From a virus, in the IMG/VR virus record IMGVR_UViG_3300043409_002494, positions 1 to 26,668 of that record: a stretch of 26,668 bases of DNA. One strand, 5' to 3'. The position numbers and the translations under genes are program-made. The notes below the pieces were generated by a model, which was given only the letters and a program-made list of their open reading frames with translations, was not told where the DNA came from and did not search any database. Below, one piece after another: positions 3,386 to 23,159 of this stretch (positions are counted from its first letter, which is position 1; each line of letters starts with the position of its first letter).

Positions 3386-4144
3386 GTGTCTGAACCGGAA
3401 TTAAGTCTGGTTTACAAGCTGGCCCCAGCACCGAGGGTTGACAATTCCGACTCCGGCGGCTTCGCTGGCTACGCATCGACATTCCATTTTCTCGACTACC
3501 ACGGCGACATCGTTGCACCTGGAGCTTACAAGGCTGATATCCAACGGTTTATGTCCAAGGGGTTCATCGGTGGGATCAACCATGATCACGCCAACCCTAT
3601 CGGCAAGCCAGTGGAACTCTTCGAGGATGCAAAGGGATTGTTTCTTGAAGCGGTTCTGGTGGACACGGTCAAGGCCCAGGAAGATCGCAAGCTGATCACA
3701 TCAGGGGTCGTCAAAGAGCTGTCGGTGGGAATTATCCCATTGCAAATCAAAAGAATGACCAAGAAGGATACGCTCGACTATTGGAAGAAGGCTGGATACA
3801 GCCCCTCCGAAGAAGAGTTGATGCGAGCCGAGAGCGGTTCACGGCTTATCAAACGAGCAAAACTTCTCGAGATCTCCCCAGTCGCCATGGGGGCAAATGA
3901 ACAAACTGCGATCTCGTCATACAAGGCAGGGCGAAAGATTTCGCAAACAACGGCAGACCTTCTGGCTCAAGTGTGCGCCCAGATCGAAGCTGCTCATGAA
4001 ATGCTTGAAACTCTGCTTGTCGATGCCGGAATCAAATCCGAATCGGAAGAAGATGACGCTGAAGCTCCGGCTAAGGCAAAAGCTGTTGTTGAAGATCCAT
4101 TAAACGACCTACTCGAAGCGTTTCGCGCCTACATCAAGGAGTAA
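3386..4144 (+). CDS. prohead maturation protease, HK97 family
   Basis: A 252-residue protein starting at GTG 3386 with SD GAGGAAA upstream. It matches the HK97-type prohead protease: GYAS-x-F near residue 28-33, then D-x-x-G-D-I-V-x-P-G-A at 37-47, the catalytic His in the NHDH/PIGK block (about His66) and the catalytic Ser in KELSVGI (Ser113). This enzyme cuts the capsid protein's N-terminal delta domain and itself inside the prohead so that the shell can expand. The C-terminal 80 residues are helical and acidic (EEDDAEAPAKAKA), as expected for a tail that holds the protease in the prohead. The next gene, five bases on, is its substrate; the SD for that gene (AAGGAG) lies in this gene's last codons. 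Confidence 0.9.
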   Translation: MSEPELSLVYKLAPAPRVDNSDSGGFAGYASTFHFLDYHGDIVAPGAYKADIQRFMSKGFIGGINHDHANPIGKPVELFEDAKGLFLEAVLVDTVKAQEDRKLITSGVVKELSVGIIPLQIKRMTKKDTLDYWKKAGYSPSEEELMRAESGSRLIKRAKLLEISPVAMGANEQTAISSYKAGRKISQTTADLLAQVCAQIEAAHEMLETLLVDAGIKSESEEDDAEAPAKAKAVVEDPLNDLLEAFRAYIKE

Positions 4145-18360: not shown

Positions 18361-19158
18361 TCAAACCTTTCTGTGTTCAAATCGCAGAGACTCATACCCA
18401 TCAACATCAATGAATATGTTCATATCTTGAAATACGCTTGTCGCGTAAACGCAAATCTCTCGAGCTATCGTCACAGCCAGTCTTCTGATCTCAAGGTCAG
18501 CATGAATCGAACCCCTCTGCTCGAGGATGTTTCGCCATGCCCTCAGATTCCCCGACATGAAGAGGTGCGTTTCAATCGAGTTTGGCAGAACAGATCTCGC
18601 GGCTTCGCGAGCCTTCTTCCGAATATATGTCAACGCTTCGCGGTCAGCTGTCTCGTCAGGATGATCTTCTTGCCACTTTCGGCTGATCGCAGTGGTGCAA
18701 ATCTTGAGCATCCGGTCATAAGAGGCAGACGCAGCAGTCACTTCCGTTTTAAAGCATTGCTCCGCAACAGCATCCCTAATGATCAAAGGTGGAACAATGT
18801 ACCCCAGATTGTCAGGTTCAACGTACCTTTGAGACAACTGCGAGAACGCTGTACCAGCCCTGTGCCGGATCAACTCATGAGTTAAACTCCGAGATACACC
18901 TGTGATCAATAGACCCACGTAGGAGTGTTCTAGGACGCTTCCATGACCAACCTCGAGGATATGACCAATGTAGCCCCTATTGCCTCCAGGACGAGGGTTT
19001 TTGAACGATTGGTAGCATACTCGGCCAGCAAACTCAGGGATGTGGTCCAAACTGTGTGTATTCTGGGCAGTCATTCCTGAGGCGTAGTCTTTAAGATCGT
19101 AGTCTCGGAAGATCGACACGCTTGCAACTTTTACCTTGGGTTCATATATCAACTGCAT
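18361..19158 (-). CDS. thyX: flavin-dependent thymidylate synthase
   Basis: ThyX makes dTMP from dUMP using FAD, NADPH and methylene-tetrahydrofolate, feeding phage DNA synthesis. The signature RHRAGTAFSQLSQRY is present at about residues 98-112; it has eight residues between RHR and SxRY, one more than the common seven. Other family features include VGHGSVLEH upstream of the signature and a C-terminal NLRAWRNILEQR block with the arginine used in dUMP binding. The start is placed at ATG 19158 (265 residues), with AAGGA 7 bases upstream; an ATG at 19233 would overlap the preceding gene by 85 bases and lacks family similarity in that part. It overlaps the upstream gene by 10 bases. Confidence 0.9.
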   Translation of the reverse strand: MQLIYEPKVKVASVSIFRDYDLKDYASGMTAQNTHSLDHIPEFAGRVCYQSFKNPRPGGNRGYIGHILEVGHGSVLEHSYVGLLITGVSRSLTHELIRHRAGTAFSQLSQRYVEPDNLGYIVPPLIIRDAVAEQCFKTEVTAASASYDRMLKICTTAISRKWQEDHPDETADREALTYIRKKAREAARSVLPNSIETHLFMSGNLRAWRNILEQRGSIHADLEIRRLAVTIAREICVYATSVFQDMNIFIDVDGYESLRFEHRKV

Positions 19159-19403
19159 GAGCATGTCCTTTGAGCTGTTACGTAGGCATGGAATGACCGA
19201 ATTGCTTCTTTTCTCGATGGATGTCCTTCCCACTCCAAGAAGCCAAAGGCTTCATCTTTTACAAAGATCCCATCGACAAGCACATAAACCGTCAAGTAAT
19301 GCAAGTCCTGTTCTTCACGGAAGTAGATCTCGGCCTTGTAAGGCTCATCCACCAGCGTGACTGTTATTCCGTCTATCGTTGACCATCTGTTGGCGTGCTT
19401 CAT
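19149..19403 (-). CDS. hypothetical protein upstream of thyX
   Basis: An 84-residue protein from ATG 19403 with AAGG 7 bases upstream; a start at 19442 would add 13 polar residues and overlap the previous gene by 98 bases. It has a beta-strand pattern (GITVTLVDEPYKAEIYFREE, then LTVYVLVDGIFVKDEAF) and a C-terminal helix. I do not recognise a family. Its stop overlaps the thyX start region, so it is coupled to thyX. Confidence 0.5.
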   Translation of the reverse strand: MKHANRWSTIDGITVTLVDEPYKAEIYFREEQDLHYLTVYVLVDGIFVKDEAFGFLEWEGHPSRKEAIRSFHAYVTAQRTCSCS

Positions 19404-19638: not shown

Positions 19639-19882
19639 GGTCTTTCCTCATTTTTGCGATCCATCGGGTCACATACCTCCGACTCAGACACTGAACCGCA
19701 GAGCAATCCTTCATGTACACGCAACCGTTCGCAAACTCGCAACAGATCATGAATCTGTCGATATCGATGTCTTGCCTTGAGTCAGGCTCATGCGGGTGAA
19801 CGGTTACAACTTCCACATCAAAGCACCTTGCAATCTCGGTTTGCAGATTATGAATCGTGCTTGGTATGCCACTAATCTTCAT
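19622..19882 (-). CDS. 86-residue Cys-containing hypothetical protein
   Basis: Starts at ATG 19882 inside the 3' end of the helicase gene, with a strong SD (GGGAGG, 6 bases upstream). The sequence has a helical N-terminus, then DIDRFMICCEFANGCVYMKDCSAVQCLSRR with five Cys, and a basic C-terminal helix. The Cys cluster may bind metal. No family recognised. The leader GTACAAGGGAGGA resembles the CsrA-binding consensus, which is worth noting because this operon encodes a CsrA homologue. Confidence 0.5.
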   Translation of the reverse strand: MKISGIPSTIHNLQTEIARCFDVEVVTVHPHEPDSRQDIDIDRFMICCEFANGCVYMKDCSAVQCLSRRYVTRWIAKMRKDLGIHP

Positions 19883-22800
19883 GTTGTCCTCCCTTGTACT
19901 TTTGAATAGCTTCTGATGCTTGCCCGAACTGTAGTCCCCGAGCCTTCTCAGGCTTCATTCCCAACGAAATCAGGTAGTTCAGTTGTTTGATCGAACACAG
20001 CCCTGAATTTCGCCTGTCAATGATCTGGCCGATCAACTGCGAAGCCTGACGTTTGGTCATGTTGTTGACATCTGCCATCCCCGACTTCGCCAGAAAGTCT
20101 TTCTGAGCTGGAGTCGCCAGTTCCCCAAAACGGTTTGCGTTGGTCAGCATGGCCCGAGACATCCCCAGCGAAGCTGCAAGCTCAAATGGGTTAATCTCCA
20201 CTCGCCGATAAGTCATGTCCAGACGAGCCACCGGAACCTTGATCTCCTGCCTCTGTTTCCTTTCTGTCTTGGCTCGCTCGACAGCTTGCCAGAGATCAAC
20301 ACCCTCTTCGACCAACTCCTCGGCACGTTTGGAGTCAACCGTTTCGCAATCTGTCAATGAGCTTGGCCCAATCAGGTCCATGTCCGTTGTGTGCGAAAAA
20401 TCAAGGATCAGGCAGTCCGACTTGCCTTTGCAAAGCCTCGTCCCTCGCCCGACCATCTGGGCATAAGCAATCCGGCTTCGAGTTGGCTTCAGAACCACAC
20501 AGTCTGTAGGCTTGTCGTCAAACCCTTCCGTAAGAATCTGGCAATTGACAAGGATCTTCGTGAGACCGTTTTTATAACGCTGGATTGTGTTGTCGCGGTC
20601 AGGCTTATCGCCGGAAACCCAGTCGCTGGCATGTCCCAGTTGCTTCAAAGCATCAGCCATCGCAATAGAACTACCAACGTCAGGCATGAAGACGATGATC
20701 TTCTTCCGATCCTCAATCTCTTTACTGATCGCGTTTGCTAATAGCTCGATGGCTGGCTGGATCTTACGTCCAAGGTCACCCTGAGCGAAATCGCCATTCT
20801 TACCCGTTGTTTTGCATCCCCTCAGGTCAACCCCCAGAGAACACCGGACAAACTTGACAGGTGACAGAAATGGACCAGCAGGATCATGGATTGCGTCGTA
20901 AAGCGAGTAGCTGTAAACGACATCCTCGAAACGCTTCAGGCTCTGACCGTCAGGTCGATCAATCGTTGCTGTGATTCCTACGAGTTTGGCATCAGAGAAG
21001 TAGTCGTAAACGGACGAATAAGTCTTGTTGGACTCTCCCGCATGATGGCAGTTGTGTACTAATACGCCGTTGGCAAAGTAGTTATTGTTCCCTTCAACCT
21101 CGAGGTTATAAGTAACACCTCCTTTGCACAGTCCTCCGAATGTTCCATCACCTGTTTGTTCGTGAAACGCAACACTTTCCACCCTTGCGAATTCAGACAA
21201 GCCTCTTTTCGCCGATCCTGTTCTTTTCTTGGTATCGAGTTGTGCGATTGACCGTCTATCTCGACCGCTAGCCGAATGTCCTTGCAACCCAAATCTATTT
21301 TGTAATGATTCGGAGTCTTGAAGAGTTGCCGTGATTCCTGCGTTGTTAAGACCGTAATAGGAGTCAGGCCAGTCAGATCCGACAGAGTCTTTTCGGCAAC
21401 CGACATGCCCCTCCCATTCCCCCCTTGCACTGGGGGTTTCCAGCCGATCTCCTTTAGCCTGGCTTTCTGCCTCTCCCGAACCTCCTCCCTCTTCATTGGA
21501 TTGTTGGACTTCATACGACCAGACGCATACTTCCGGTTTGTTGCTGCCATCCTTAGAGAGGAATCGATCCCCTGACATTCTTTTGAGCATGTCGCTCGAT
21601 AACGCCCGTAACCCATTTTCGTCTGTTTCCCGCACACCTTGCATTTGCCATCCATAAACCATGTCTCCTGGAGAAAGATCGCAAGCCTTAACCCATCCCC
21701 GATCTCGGGAAAACAATGGGTGATTCGGCGTGACAGTCATTGCTGAACCGTTTGAGAAACGTACAGTCATTAATTCCGATGGAACTGAAACCAGTTTTTT
21801 CTTAACCGACTTCATTTCAATTTCGCGGCTTGACTCGTTGAATGTAGCGACTAGGTCGCCATTGCAAATTCTTTCAATAGGAATCCCATCCACAAGCGTC
21901 CCAGCGGGAAAACATTCGTCAGTCACAATCAACTGAAAATCGTCTGGCTGATACCGCTTGCATCGCTTGGTCATTGACTGAATGGTTGTGCAAACCACAT
22001 GCGGATCGCCCAGGGCAAACCCGTGATGGGAACCCTGCTCACGACCCACCATCAGTCCGCACAGTTCAAACGTGTCAATCGCCTGTTTTACAAGTTCCGT
22101 TCTGTGGACTGCGAACAAGGCTCGAGAGATAAACCCCTCCTCAATCAGCTGACGAATCAGAATACCTACGGTTACGGTTTTTCCACAGTTATGTGCAACG
22201 ACCCCGTTGGCAATGAAATTGCTTGTCTTGTCTACGCTAACGATGTCATAGGTGTCGATCCAGCCAGCATCCTCAACGGCAAAGACATTGTCTGTTTCAA
22301 CCAGCGTTTTGCCGATGTTCAGGTGATTGCTTTGTTTGCCTTCAAGAGACCAATGCTCCTGATGACTCATAATCGCCAGGTTTTCGCTCCTGTTGTCGGT
22401 ATGGTCTCCGTTGATGTGATGAACTGCGGTTACTGCTGGGTCAAGATAAACCCATGACTTGCCAAGGTCTCCGGTTCTCAAGCATTCAATGTACTTGTCA
22501 AGGGGCATCTCATTCATTTCAGACTCAACCACAAGCCTGTGGTAAGCCACGCGATAAAGCCTTAGAGACTTCCCTCTTCTGTTCGAGACGCATTTCCCAG
22601 CGTACGGGTGATAGTAAAGGTTGTTTACTTGCCTGTATTGCTTCTTAGGCTTCGGCTTTCGGTCGCCGGACTTGCGTTGGCTTGCTTCGACTACGATACT
22701 CTTGCCTGGCGAGTCCTTTGCTTCAATCCATCCGTTCGACGACAAGATCTTATGATCAGGAGTGCATACGAGTTCTCGTCCACTTGCGAATCGGACCCTA

Positions 22801-23159
22801 ACGACAGGCTTGATCCCGCTCGACTGGATGTGGCTGAAGCTATTGCATTCAATGTGCTTACCGTTAAAACTTCGGACACGCTTTACTACATGAGGTTTGA
22901 CCCTTCGGTCAGCCTGAAGCCTAAAGTGATCCCGAAGAGACCGAGTAACACCCTTGCCTCCACGGTTAATAGTTACGATAGCATCACCGGATATACATCC
23001 AGTCGCCATCTGGAGAATTCCAGCCTTATGATCGTCCTCGTAGATCCATGACCTAATCTTATCAATCGCCTCATCCTGATACGGATAAGTCGAAAACTCG
23101 CAATCCATTAACGCAGAATAGGTTAGCTCACGCATAATACCCATGTCCCCCGCATCCAT
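19872..23159 (-). CDS. SF2 DNA/RNA helicase precursor with two inteins
   Basis: A 1095-residue precursor. Removing the two inteins (residues 55-324 and 416-703) leaves a 537-residue DEAD/DEAH-type helicase: YPYQDEAI near 25, Walker A ATG+CGKT (51-54 joined to 325-328), FAVHRTELVKQA (349-360), motif II DE+CHH (414-415 joined to 704-706), VGITATIDRP (727-736), VNCQILTEGFDD (871-882) and QMVGRGTRL (901-909). The C-terminal 100 residues carry two helical repeats typical of phage helicases of this type. It would unwind DNA in phage replication or recombination. Without splicing, both ATP-binding motifs are broken, so the enzyme should be inactive until both inteins leave. The exact start is uncertain: ATG 23159 has a poor SD, and ATG 23135 (residue 9) is an alternative. 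It overlaps the zinc-knuckle gene upstream. Confidence 0.9.
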   Translation of the reverse strand: MDAGDMGIMRELTYSALMDCEFSTYPYQDEAIDKIRSWIYEDDHKAGILQMATGCISGDAIVTINRGGKGVTRSLRDHFRLQADRRVKPHVVKRVRSFNGKHIECNSFSHIQSSGIKPVVRVRFASGRELVCTPDHKILSSNGWIEAKDSPGKSIVVEASQRKSGDRKPKPKKQYRQVNNLYYHPYAGKCVSNRRGKSLRLYRVAYHRLVVESEMNEMPLDKYIECLRTGDLGKSWVYLDPAVTAVHHINGDHTDNRSENLAIMSHQEHWSLEGKQSNHLNIGKTLVETDNVFAVEDAGWIDTYDIVSVDKTSNFIANGVVAHNCGKTVTVGILIRQLIEEGFISRALFAVHRTELVKQAIDTFELCGLMVGREQGSHHGFALGDPHVVCTTIQSMTKRCKRYQPDDFQLIVTDECFPAGTLVDGIPIERICNGDLVATFNESSREIEMKSVKKKLVSVPSELMTVRFSNGSAMTVTPNHPLFSRDRGWVKACDLSPGDMVYGWQMQGVRETDENGLRALSSDMLKRMSGDRFLSKDGSNKPEVCVWSYEVQQSNEEGGGSGEAESQAKGDRLETPSARGEWEGHVGCRKDSVGSDWPDSYYGLNNAGITATLQDSESLQNRFGLQGHSASGRDRRSIAQLDTKKRTGSAKRGLSEFARVESVAFHEQTGDGTFGGLCKGGVTYNLEVEGNNNYFANGVLVHNCHHAGESNKTYSSVYDYFSDAKLVGITATIDRPDGQSLKRFEDVVYSYSLYDAIHDPAGPFLSPVKFVRCSLGVDLRGCKTTGKNGDFAQGDLGRKIQPAIELLANAISKEIEDRKKIIVFMPDVGSSIAMADALKQLGHASDWVSGDKPDRDNTIQRYKNGLTKILVNCQILTEGFDDKPTDCVVLKPTRSRIAYAQMVGRGTRLCKGKSDCLILDFSHTTDMDLIGPSSLTDCETVDSKRAEELVEEGVDLWQAVERAKTERKQRQEIKVPVARLDMTYRRVEINPFELAASLGMSRAMLTNANRFGELATPAQKDFLAKSGMADVNNMTKRQASQLIGQIIDRRNSGLCSIKQLNYLISLGMKPEKARGLQFGQASEAIQKYKGGQHED
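21059..21655 (-). CDS. Vsr/EDxHD-like homing endonuclease, nested in intein 2 in another frame
   Basis: A 198-residue protein read one base out of register with the helicase frame and wholly inside intein 2 (precursor residues 502-701). Its order of parts is that of a homing endonuclease: a Cys4 finger (Cys5, Cys8, Cys23, Cys27), a DNA-binding segment with NNPMKREEVRERQKARLKE, and a nuclease core: KIDLG (Asp121), LAVEIDGQSH (Glu132, Asp134, His138), EQDRRKE (Asp147) and GWKVLRFTN, as in the very-short-patch repair-like EDxHD enzymes described with split inteins and introns. It has its own SD, AGGAG, 9 bases before the ATG. It stops (TAG) three codons before the intein ends. The intein frame stays open through all 199 codons. 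It would cut intein-free helicase genes to spread intein 2. Confidence 0.85.
   Translation of the reverse strand: MDGKCKVCGKQTKMGYGRYRATCSKECQGIDSSLRMAATNRKYASGRMKSNNPMKREEVRERQKARLKEIGWKPPVQGGNGRGMSVAEKTLSDLTGLTPITVLTTQESRQLFKTPNHYKIDLGCKDIRLAVEIDGQSHNSIPRKEQDRRKEACLNSQGWKVLRFTNKQVMEHSEDCAKEVLLITSRLKGTITTLPTAY
21665..21669 (-). promoter_or_regulatory. ribosome binding site of the nested endonuclease
   Basis: AGGAG on the minus strand, 9 bases before the ATG at 21655. It lies within intein codons for the Ser-Pro-Gly-Asp region. Its presence suggests the nested gene is translated independently from the helicase mRNA rather than being a chance open frame. An ATG in the helicase frame just after it encodes an internal Met and may compete. 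Confidence 0.6.
22188..22997 (-). mobile_element. intein 1, HNH-type, in the helicase Walker A motif
   Basis: Residues 55-324 of the precursor (270 residues). It starts with the splice Cys in CISGDAIVTI (block A), has VCTPDHKILSSNGW (block B, T-x-x-H), and ends with DTYDIVSVDKTSNFIANGVVAHN followed by extein Cys325 (blocks F and G; the final His-Asn and +1 Cys are intact). Between them is an in-frame HNH endonuclease motif, HHINGDHTDNRSENL with His266/His269 after it, in place of the more common LAGLIDADG domain. The insertion splits ATG|CGKT of the P-loop. All residues needed for both splicing and DNA cutting appear to be present, so it may be an active homing element. Confidence 0.9.

What the first reader, a model, noticed from the sequence alone, without database searches (positions are those of the whole stretch)
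21059..21655. Homing endonuclease gene overprinted out of frame inside an intein
The helicase's second intein has no endonuclease motif in its own frame. A shifted frame of the same strand encodes a complete 198-residue Vsr/EDxHD-like enzyme with a Cys4 finger, a NUMOD-like DNA-binding segment and catalytic-type residues (Asp121, Glu132, Asp134, His138, Asp147), plus its own AGGAG ribosome site 9 bases before ATG. The intein frame stays open across the whole gene (199 codons; with equal codon odds chance is about (61/64)^199, near 7e-5), and the last part of the overlap also encodes the intein's conserved F and G splicing blocks. Known inteins carry the nuclease in frame, or as a free gene between split halves. 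A nested overprinted gene would let splicing and nuclease dose be set separately, by translation start rather than by protein fusion.
Basis: partly seen in the sequence, partly recalled or inferred. Interest (0 to 1): 0.93.

Follow-up and report, generated by a model that had tools for sequence, protein, structure and literature searches.

The report
Homing nuclease gene overprinted inside intein
A self-splicing protein insert (intein) in a phage helicase carries its DNA-cutting 'homing' enzyme in a different reading frame of the same DNA, and more than a hundred phage and bacterial loci share this arrangement, so it is a real, previously unannotated way of packing a selfish gene.

Summary
Intein 2 of the window's SF2 helicase (21051-21914, minus strand) has an intact HINT splicing domain interrupted by a predicted-disordered linker. 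A shifted frame of the same strand (21059-21655) encodes a 198-aa zinc-finger + DUF559/EDxHD (Vsr-like) nuclease. In a survey of 175 loci, 107 have the nuclease nested inside a contiguous intein, always in the same phase; none has it in frame; 7 (one clade, inside the nested ones in the tree) have the intein split into two ORFs with the nuclease across the gap. Free-standing relatives show about 9 stops per 100 codons in the corresponding frame; nested ones show none in 20,539 codons. Split ones have lost the codon avoidance. The nuclease frame is under purifying selection (dN/dS 0.02-0.3), the intein linker is not (about 0.8-2.6), and the two splicing ends are. Close relatives lacking the intein exist, including C. 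glutamicum phages phi673 (intein) and phi674 (none), otherwise about 99% identical. In all 40 GenBank records matched, only the host gene is annotated. The closest published case found is the ShiLan element (2025): out-of-frame HNH, no splicing domain. Translation, splicing and cutting are inferred, not tested.

The parts
19872..23159 (-). Host gene: phage SF2 (DEAD/DEAH-type, RadD/EcoAI-R-like) helicase precursor, 1095 aa, with two inteins
   Evidence: ORF; ResIII, Helicase_C, PHROG 16 DNA helicase
21051..21914 (-). Intein 2 (288 aa), inserted at DE^C-H-H of helicase motif II
   Evidence: Cys1, T62xxH65, C-terminal His-Asn then Cys+1; Intein_splicing in Pfam; alignment A4; HINT fold by AlphaFold2 + Foldseek; intein-free alleles
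21639..21914 (-). N-terminal half of HINT splicing domain (intein residues 1-92)
   Evidence: pLDDT about 91-96 for residues 1-90; dN/dS low in most pairs
21204..21638 (-). Intein-frame linker (residues 93-237), predicted disordered; DNA carries the nuclease in the other frame
   Evidence: pLDDT 32-45 in the linker blocks; intein-frame dN/dS about 0.8-2.6
21051..21203 (-). C-terminal half of HINT domain (blocks F, G; residues 238-288), dual-coding with the nuclease C-terminus over most of its length
   Evidence: pLDDT 77-94; overlap 142 nt
21059..21655 (-). Nested nuclease gene (198 aa + stop): Cys4 finger, helical linker, EDxHD/DUF559 nuclease domain; intein frame = nuclease frame +2
21665..21669 (-). 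AGGAG Shine-Dalgarno-like site, 9 nt before the nested ATG
   Evidence: SD enriched at ATGs upstream of the finger family-wide
21575..21643 (-). Cys4 finger of the nested protein (C5, C8, C23, C27)
   Evidence: invariant or nearly invariant in aligned homologues
21113..21310 (-). Catalytic core of the nested protein (residues 116-181; D121, E132, D134, H138, D147)
   Evidence: DUF559 match, invariant residues, fold match to I-Bth0305I and Vsr
22188..22997 (-). Intein 1 (270 aa) in the helicase P-loop with an ordinary in-frame HNH motif (context, independent element)
   Evidence: absent from L001-L004, present alone in L179-L181 and L187

Best explanation
It is a mobile intein whose homing endonuclease is an overprinted gene. 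Ribosomes that start at the helicase ATG make a precursor; the two halves of the HINT domain fold together, splice the helicase and release an intein with a disordered spacer (inferred from conserved splicing residues and predicted fold). Ribosomes that start at the internal ATG inside the intein make a separate zinc-finger/EDxHD nuclease (inferred). The nuclease cuts intein-free helicase alleles at motif II, and repair copies the whole element plus adjacent extein DNA, including the Cys+1 codon needed for splicing (inferred from empty alleles and flank patterns). The two frames are locked in one phase because the nuclease C-terminus and intein block F share DNA, and the intein frame is kept free of stops by avoiding T-ending nuclease codons before AA/AG/GA codons (shown). 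In one lineage that avoidance has gone and the intein has become a split ('fractured') intein (shown as a pattern; direction inferred from the rooted tree).
For: Systematic six-frame survey: 107 contiguous inteins with the nuclease at offset +2, 0 in frame, 7 split. Stop avoidance: T-ending codons 0/4028 at risky positions vs 2390/10148 elsewhere in 83 nonredundant nested loci, but 140/428 vs 221/681 in split loci; 603 stops expected, 0 seen. Controls: +2 frame of free-standing relatives 9.0 stops/100 codons, third frame of nested loci 7.2, split loci 10.9. Selection: nuclease-frame dN/dS 0.02-0.30 in the linker, intein-frame linker 0.84-2.58, splicing halves mostly 0-0.5 (WIN/L001 N half 1.19 on only 5 changes); 187 of 266 changes at nuclease third positions, p 1e-34. 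Two folds from one DNA: HINT halves with disordered middle and nuclease like DUF559 3hrl, I-Bth0305I 3r3p, Vsr 1cw0. Start signals: SD at 46/178 upstream ATGs vs 52/667 internal ATGs, p 1e-9. Mobility: alleles with neither, either or both inteins; phi673/phi674 pair with a cluster of differences within 78 nt 3' of the insertion and V-to-C at +1; intein more alike than its flanks, e.g. L026/L027 0.93-0.98 vs mostly 0.7-0.83.
Against: No expression, splicing or cleavage data. Only about two thirds of loci show an SD-like site at a candidate start by a loose scan, and six loci have no ATG/GTG/TTG upstream of the finger profile, two of them with truncated nucleases. The frame upstream of the ATG is open for 27 codons in the window, so a +1 frameshift fusion is not excluded for this locus alone. 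Nei-Gojobori dN/dS is biased where both frames are constrained. The nested class was defined by absence of stops, so the 0/4028 is informative only together with the split and free-standing controls and the recoding test.
Confidence: 0.88

Rival explanations
1. The nuclease is made only as a fusion to the N-half of the helicase/intein by programmed +1 frameshifting, not by internal initiation.
For: In the close copies of the window the nuclease frame is open for 27 codons upstream of its ATG; the nuclease frame is +1 relative to the intein frame in every locus.
Against: In 55 of 107 nested loci an in-frame stop lies downstream of, or within 60 nt of, the end of the N-intein, often directly before an ATG; SD-like sites are enriched at the candidate ATGs.
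Confidence: 0.06
2. The shifted frame is a decaying remnant of a formerly in-frame or free-standing nuclease and is no longer functional.
For: L016 and L115 carry truncated nuclease ORFs and Vibrio phage K389 has a 150-aa mini-intein without it, so loss does occur.
Against: Nuclease-frame dN/dS 0.02-0.3 in several independent close pairs; catalytic residues invariant; no in-frame ancestor among 107.
Confidence: 0.05
3. Sequencing or assembly frameshift, or a chance open frame.
For: None found beyond the general possibility in metagenome contigs.
Against: Same phase in 107 loci including isolate genomes of Vibrio, Corynebacterium and Pseudomonas phages; recoding test.
Confidence: 0.005

Closest known systems
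ShiLan domain and Pacc40 insertion (Arsenault, Gosselin and Gogarten 2025, PMC11855218)
   Same: Out-of-frame homing-type endonuclease hidden in an insertion that keeps the host frame open; patchy distribution suggesting homing; not recognised in the host-frame annotation
   Different: HNH nuclease, no splicing domain of any kind, no detectable ribosome site; described for phage methylases. Here the nuclease is EDxHD/DUF559 and the host insertion is an intein with intact splicing blocks at helicase motif II in over 100 loci.
Fractured genes with split inteins and EDxHD/Vsr-like endonucleases (Dassa et al. 2009, from memory and from citations in PMC12350094 and PMC6801210; full text not held)
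   Same: Intein plus EDxHD/Vsr-like homing endonuclease in phage genes; loci L009, L013, L059, L065, L091, L103 have this split layout
   Different: In the window and 106 others the intein is one continuous ORF and the nuclease lies on top of it in another frame; the split clade lies inside these in the tree
I-Bth0305I (PDB 3r3p), EDxHD homing endonuclease
   Same: Nuclease fold and motif; VIA-align Z 10.8, 90 residues, rmsd 2.5
   Different: From memory: encoded in a group I intron. Here overprinted on an intein
Canonical large inteins with in-frame LAGLIDADG or HNH domain
   Same: Same splicing domain and homing life cycle (full, mini, empty alleles)
   Different: Endonuclease here is not part of the spliced polypeptide

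Membership tests
Intein (HINT, class-1 type residues) | Cys1, block B TxxH, C-terminal His-Asn, Cys/Ser/Thr at +1 | tested here: met
   Intein alignment: C1, T62, H65, N288 invariant, penultimate residue His in the window; +1 is Cys or Ser in all 114 loci
Intein (HINT, class-1 type residues) | HINT fold | tested here: met
   AlphaFold2 halves pLDDT 77-96; Foldseek top hits are mini-inteins
Intein (HINT, class-1 type residues) | Intein-free alleles of the same gene | tested here: met
   L176-L178, phi674
Intein (HINT, class-1 type residues) | Protein splicing | not testable with these tools
   Needs expression assay
EDxHD (Vsr-like) homing endonuclease | E-x-D ... H ... D catalytic motif | tested here: met
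   E132, D134, H138, D147 invariant in 20 homologues
EDxHD (Vsr-like) homing endonuclease | Vsr/PD-(D/E)xK-type fold | tested here: met
   3hrl Z 12.2, 3r3p Z 10.8, 1cw0 Z 8.8; DUF559 E 4.9e-15
EDxHD (Vsr-like) homing endonuclease | Site-specific cleavage of the empty site | not testable with these tools
   Indirect only: flank conversion pattern phi673/phi674
Fractured split-intein gene | Host gene broken into two ORFs with nuclease gene between | tested here: not met
   Window and 106 others contiguous; met only in 7 loci of one clade
ShiLan-type hidden endonuclease insert | Out-of-frame nuclease inside an open host frame | tested here: met
ShiLan-type hidden endonuclease insert | HNH nuclease and no splicing domain | tested here: not met
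   DUF559/EDxHD nuclease and Intein_splicing domain

The most novel reading that the evidence does not exclude
Overprinting is the ancestral state of this intein family and a route to split inteins: because the spacer between the splicing halves is coded only as the shadow of the nuclease, loss of stop avoidance cuts the intein frame and yields a trans-splicing split intein with a 'free-standing' nuclease in the gap. Some fractured phage genes could then be relaxed overprinted inteins, with nuclease dose set by its own ribosome site throughout.
Probability: 0.45. Interest if true: 0.88.

Novelty: new variant of a known kind. Interest (0 to 1): 0.84.

Why it matters
Intein surveys look for the endonuclease in the intein's own frame; this large family would be scored as endonuclease-free although its members look like active homing elements. 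It shows long-lived dual coding, with two predicted protein folds from one DNA and a shared stretch where both are conserved. It offers a concrete, testable path from contiguous to split inteins. It also supplies compact cis-splicing inteins whose spacer is naturally disordered, and a family of nucleases associated with helicase motif II. The phi673/phi674 pair makes the homing prediction directly testable in a laboratory strain.

Tried and rejected
Sequencing error or decayed fusion: rejected by 107 same-phase loci and no in-frame relative. Chance frame: rejected by recoding and controls. TY-Chap3, YacG and NinG Pfam hits of the nested protein: weak, below cut-off, taken as compositional or finger similarity. 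L074 first scored as 'no intein': on reading, it is a free-standing relative upstream of an intein-free helicase. Literature: ten searches found no description of an out-of-frame nuclease in an intein with intact splicing blocks; Dassa 2009 and Gorbalenya 1998 are not held, so prior mention there cannot be excluded. Other intein insertion sites or nuclease families were not surveyed for overprinting.

Full report
What is there. The minus strand of the window carries a 1095-codon SF2 helicase gene (19872-23159) with two inteins. Intein 1 (22188-22997) lies in the P-loop and has an ordinary in-frame HNH motif. Intein 2 (21051-21914) lies in motif II, between DE and CHH. In its own frame it has the splicing blocks (Cys1, TxxH, HN^C) and nothing resembling an endonuclease. 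The same strand, one frame over, encodes 198 codons from an ATG preceded by AGGAG (21059-21655). That protein has a Cys4 finger and a DUF559 domain with the E-x-D...H...D residues of EDxHD/Vsr-like enzymes.

It is a family. Scans of IMG/VR, GTDB contigs and GenBank phages with the nested protein returned relatives in phages of Vibrio, Corynebacterium and Pseudomonas and in many environmental contigs and bacterial genomes. I built profiles of the nuclease, the N-half and the C-half of the intein, and searched all six frames of 175 loci. In 107 the intein is one ORF with the nuclease on top of it; the intein frame is always nuclease frame +2. None is in frame. Seven have N- and C-halves in separate ORFs. 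Three are cut by contig ends. The other 58 are, except L074, distant free-standing DUF559 genes. In all 40 GenBank records matched, the listed annotation at the match is the host gene; the seven tables I opened show no separate nuclease gene.

It is not chance and both frames matter. In this phase a stop in the intein frame arises only where a nuclease codon ending in T precedes a codon starting AA, AG or GA. In 83 nonredundant nested loci this never happens at 4028 such positions, although 24% of other codons end in T; in the split loci the frequencies are equal, 33% and 32%. About 603 stops were expected under synonymous recoding and none is present. Free-standing relatives have 9.0 stops per 100 codons in that frame, and the third frame of nested loci has 7.2. 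This contrast is the control for the fact that 'nested' was defined by an open frame. In close pairs, changes in the linker fall at nuclease third positions (187 of 266), nuclease-frame dN/dS is 0.02-0.30 and intein-frame linker dN/dS is about 0.8-2.6, while the splicing halves are mostly conserved (positional switch also). So the nuclease is under purifying selection, the linker is its shadow, and the splicing ends are conserved in their own right. The end of the nuclease core (GWKVLRF) and the block F strand (RVESVAF) use the same bases.

Structure. AlphaFold2 on the nested protein gives pLDDT 82; its nuclease domain matches 3hrl (DUF559), 3r3p (I-Bth0305I) and 1cw0 (Vsr). AlphaFold2 on the intein frame gives a confident HINT domain at residues 1-90 and 238-288 and pLDDT 32-45 in the linker; its best matches are mini-inteins.

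Start of translation. SD-like sites are enriched at ATGs upstream of the finger compared with ATGs inside the nuclease (46/178 vs 52/667). In 55 of 107 loci an in-frame stop lies close to or beyond the end of the N-intein, often right before an ATG, which argues against a frameshift fusion as the general mode. The split clade lacks SD sites but has A-rich leaders. Internal initiation is the best inference; it is not shown.

Mobility. Close relatives of the window's helicase have neither intein (L176-L178), intein 1 only (L179-L181, L187), intein 2 only (L001-L004) or both (window). The closest empty alleles have Val at the position where occupied alleles have Cys+1, though more distant intein-free helicases (L188, L189, Vibrio phage 1.024.O) have Cys there. 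Corynebacterium phages phi673 and phi674 are about 99% identical in the helicase; phi673 has a 302-residue intein with the nested nuclease, phi674 has none, and seven differences cluster within 78 nt 3' of the site with the next at 464. In several pairs the intein is more alike than its flanks. Vibrio phages show empty (1.024.O), full (1.088.O) and mini, nuclease-less (K389) states. These are the signatures of homing; cleavage itself is inferred.

Evolution. In a tree of the nuclease domain the intein-associated forms separate from free-standing DUF559 genes (SH-aLRT 99), apart from L074, and the split loci form one clade (99) inside the nested ones. This suggests that split, 'fractured' organisation arose here from the overprinted one when stop avoidance was lost. 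Many inner branches are weak and the root rests on a distant outgroup.

Comparison with the literature. The nearest published case found is the ShiLan element, an out-of-frame HNH in a phage methylase insertion without any splicing domain (PMC11855218). EDxHD/Vsr nucleases in split-intein genes are known from Dassa et al. 2009 (cited in PMC12350094; original not held). No held paper described an out-of-frame nuclease in an intein with its splicing blocks intact.

Verdict. Observation confirmed, interpretation supported with the amendments above; new variant of a known kind. Shown: conserved dual coding, selection, family extent, presence/absence alleles. Inferred: internal initiation, splicing, cutting, homing, and the origin of the split form.

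Noticed in passing
22188-22997 (intein 1): Second intein in the helicase P-loop with in-frame HNH motif, absent from L001-L004 and present alone in L179-L181 and L187; the two inteins vary independently.
   Followed up: partly
L074:3956-6093: Free-standing relative of the nuclease directly upstream of an intein-free helicase whose frame appears to break at the motif II insertion site; could be imprecise repair, a split gene or a sequence error.
   Followed up: partly
L192 (Vibrio phage K389): 150-aa mini-intein at the same site with no nuclease frame: nuclease lost, splicing domain kept.
   Followed up: partly
L016, L115: Truncated nuclease ORFs (303 nt) in still-open inteins of helicases: apparent decay of the nuclease alone.
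   Followed up: no
L009, L013, L059, L065, L091, L103: Split form: nuclease overlaps both the N-half and the C-half ORFs by about 100 nt; C-half has its own ATG; insertion a few residues downstream in motif II.
   Followed up: partly
L191 vs L023: Corynebacterium phages phi674 and phi673 are a natural intein-minus/intein-plus pair on laboratory strain ATCC 13032.
   Followed up: yes
18361-19233: Thymidylate synthase gene (PHROG 85, E 2.4e-52); sequence looks like the ThyX type.
   Followed up: no
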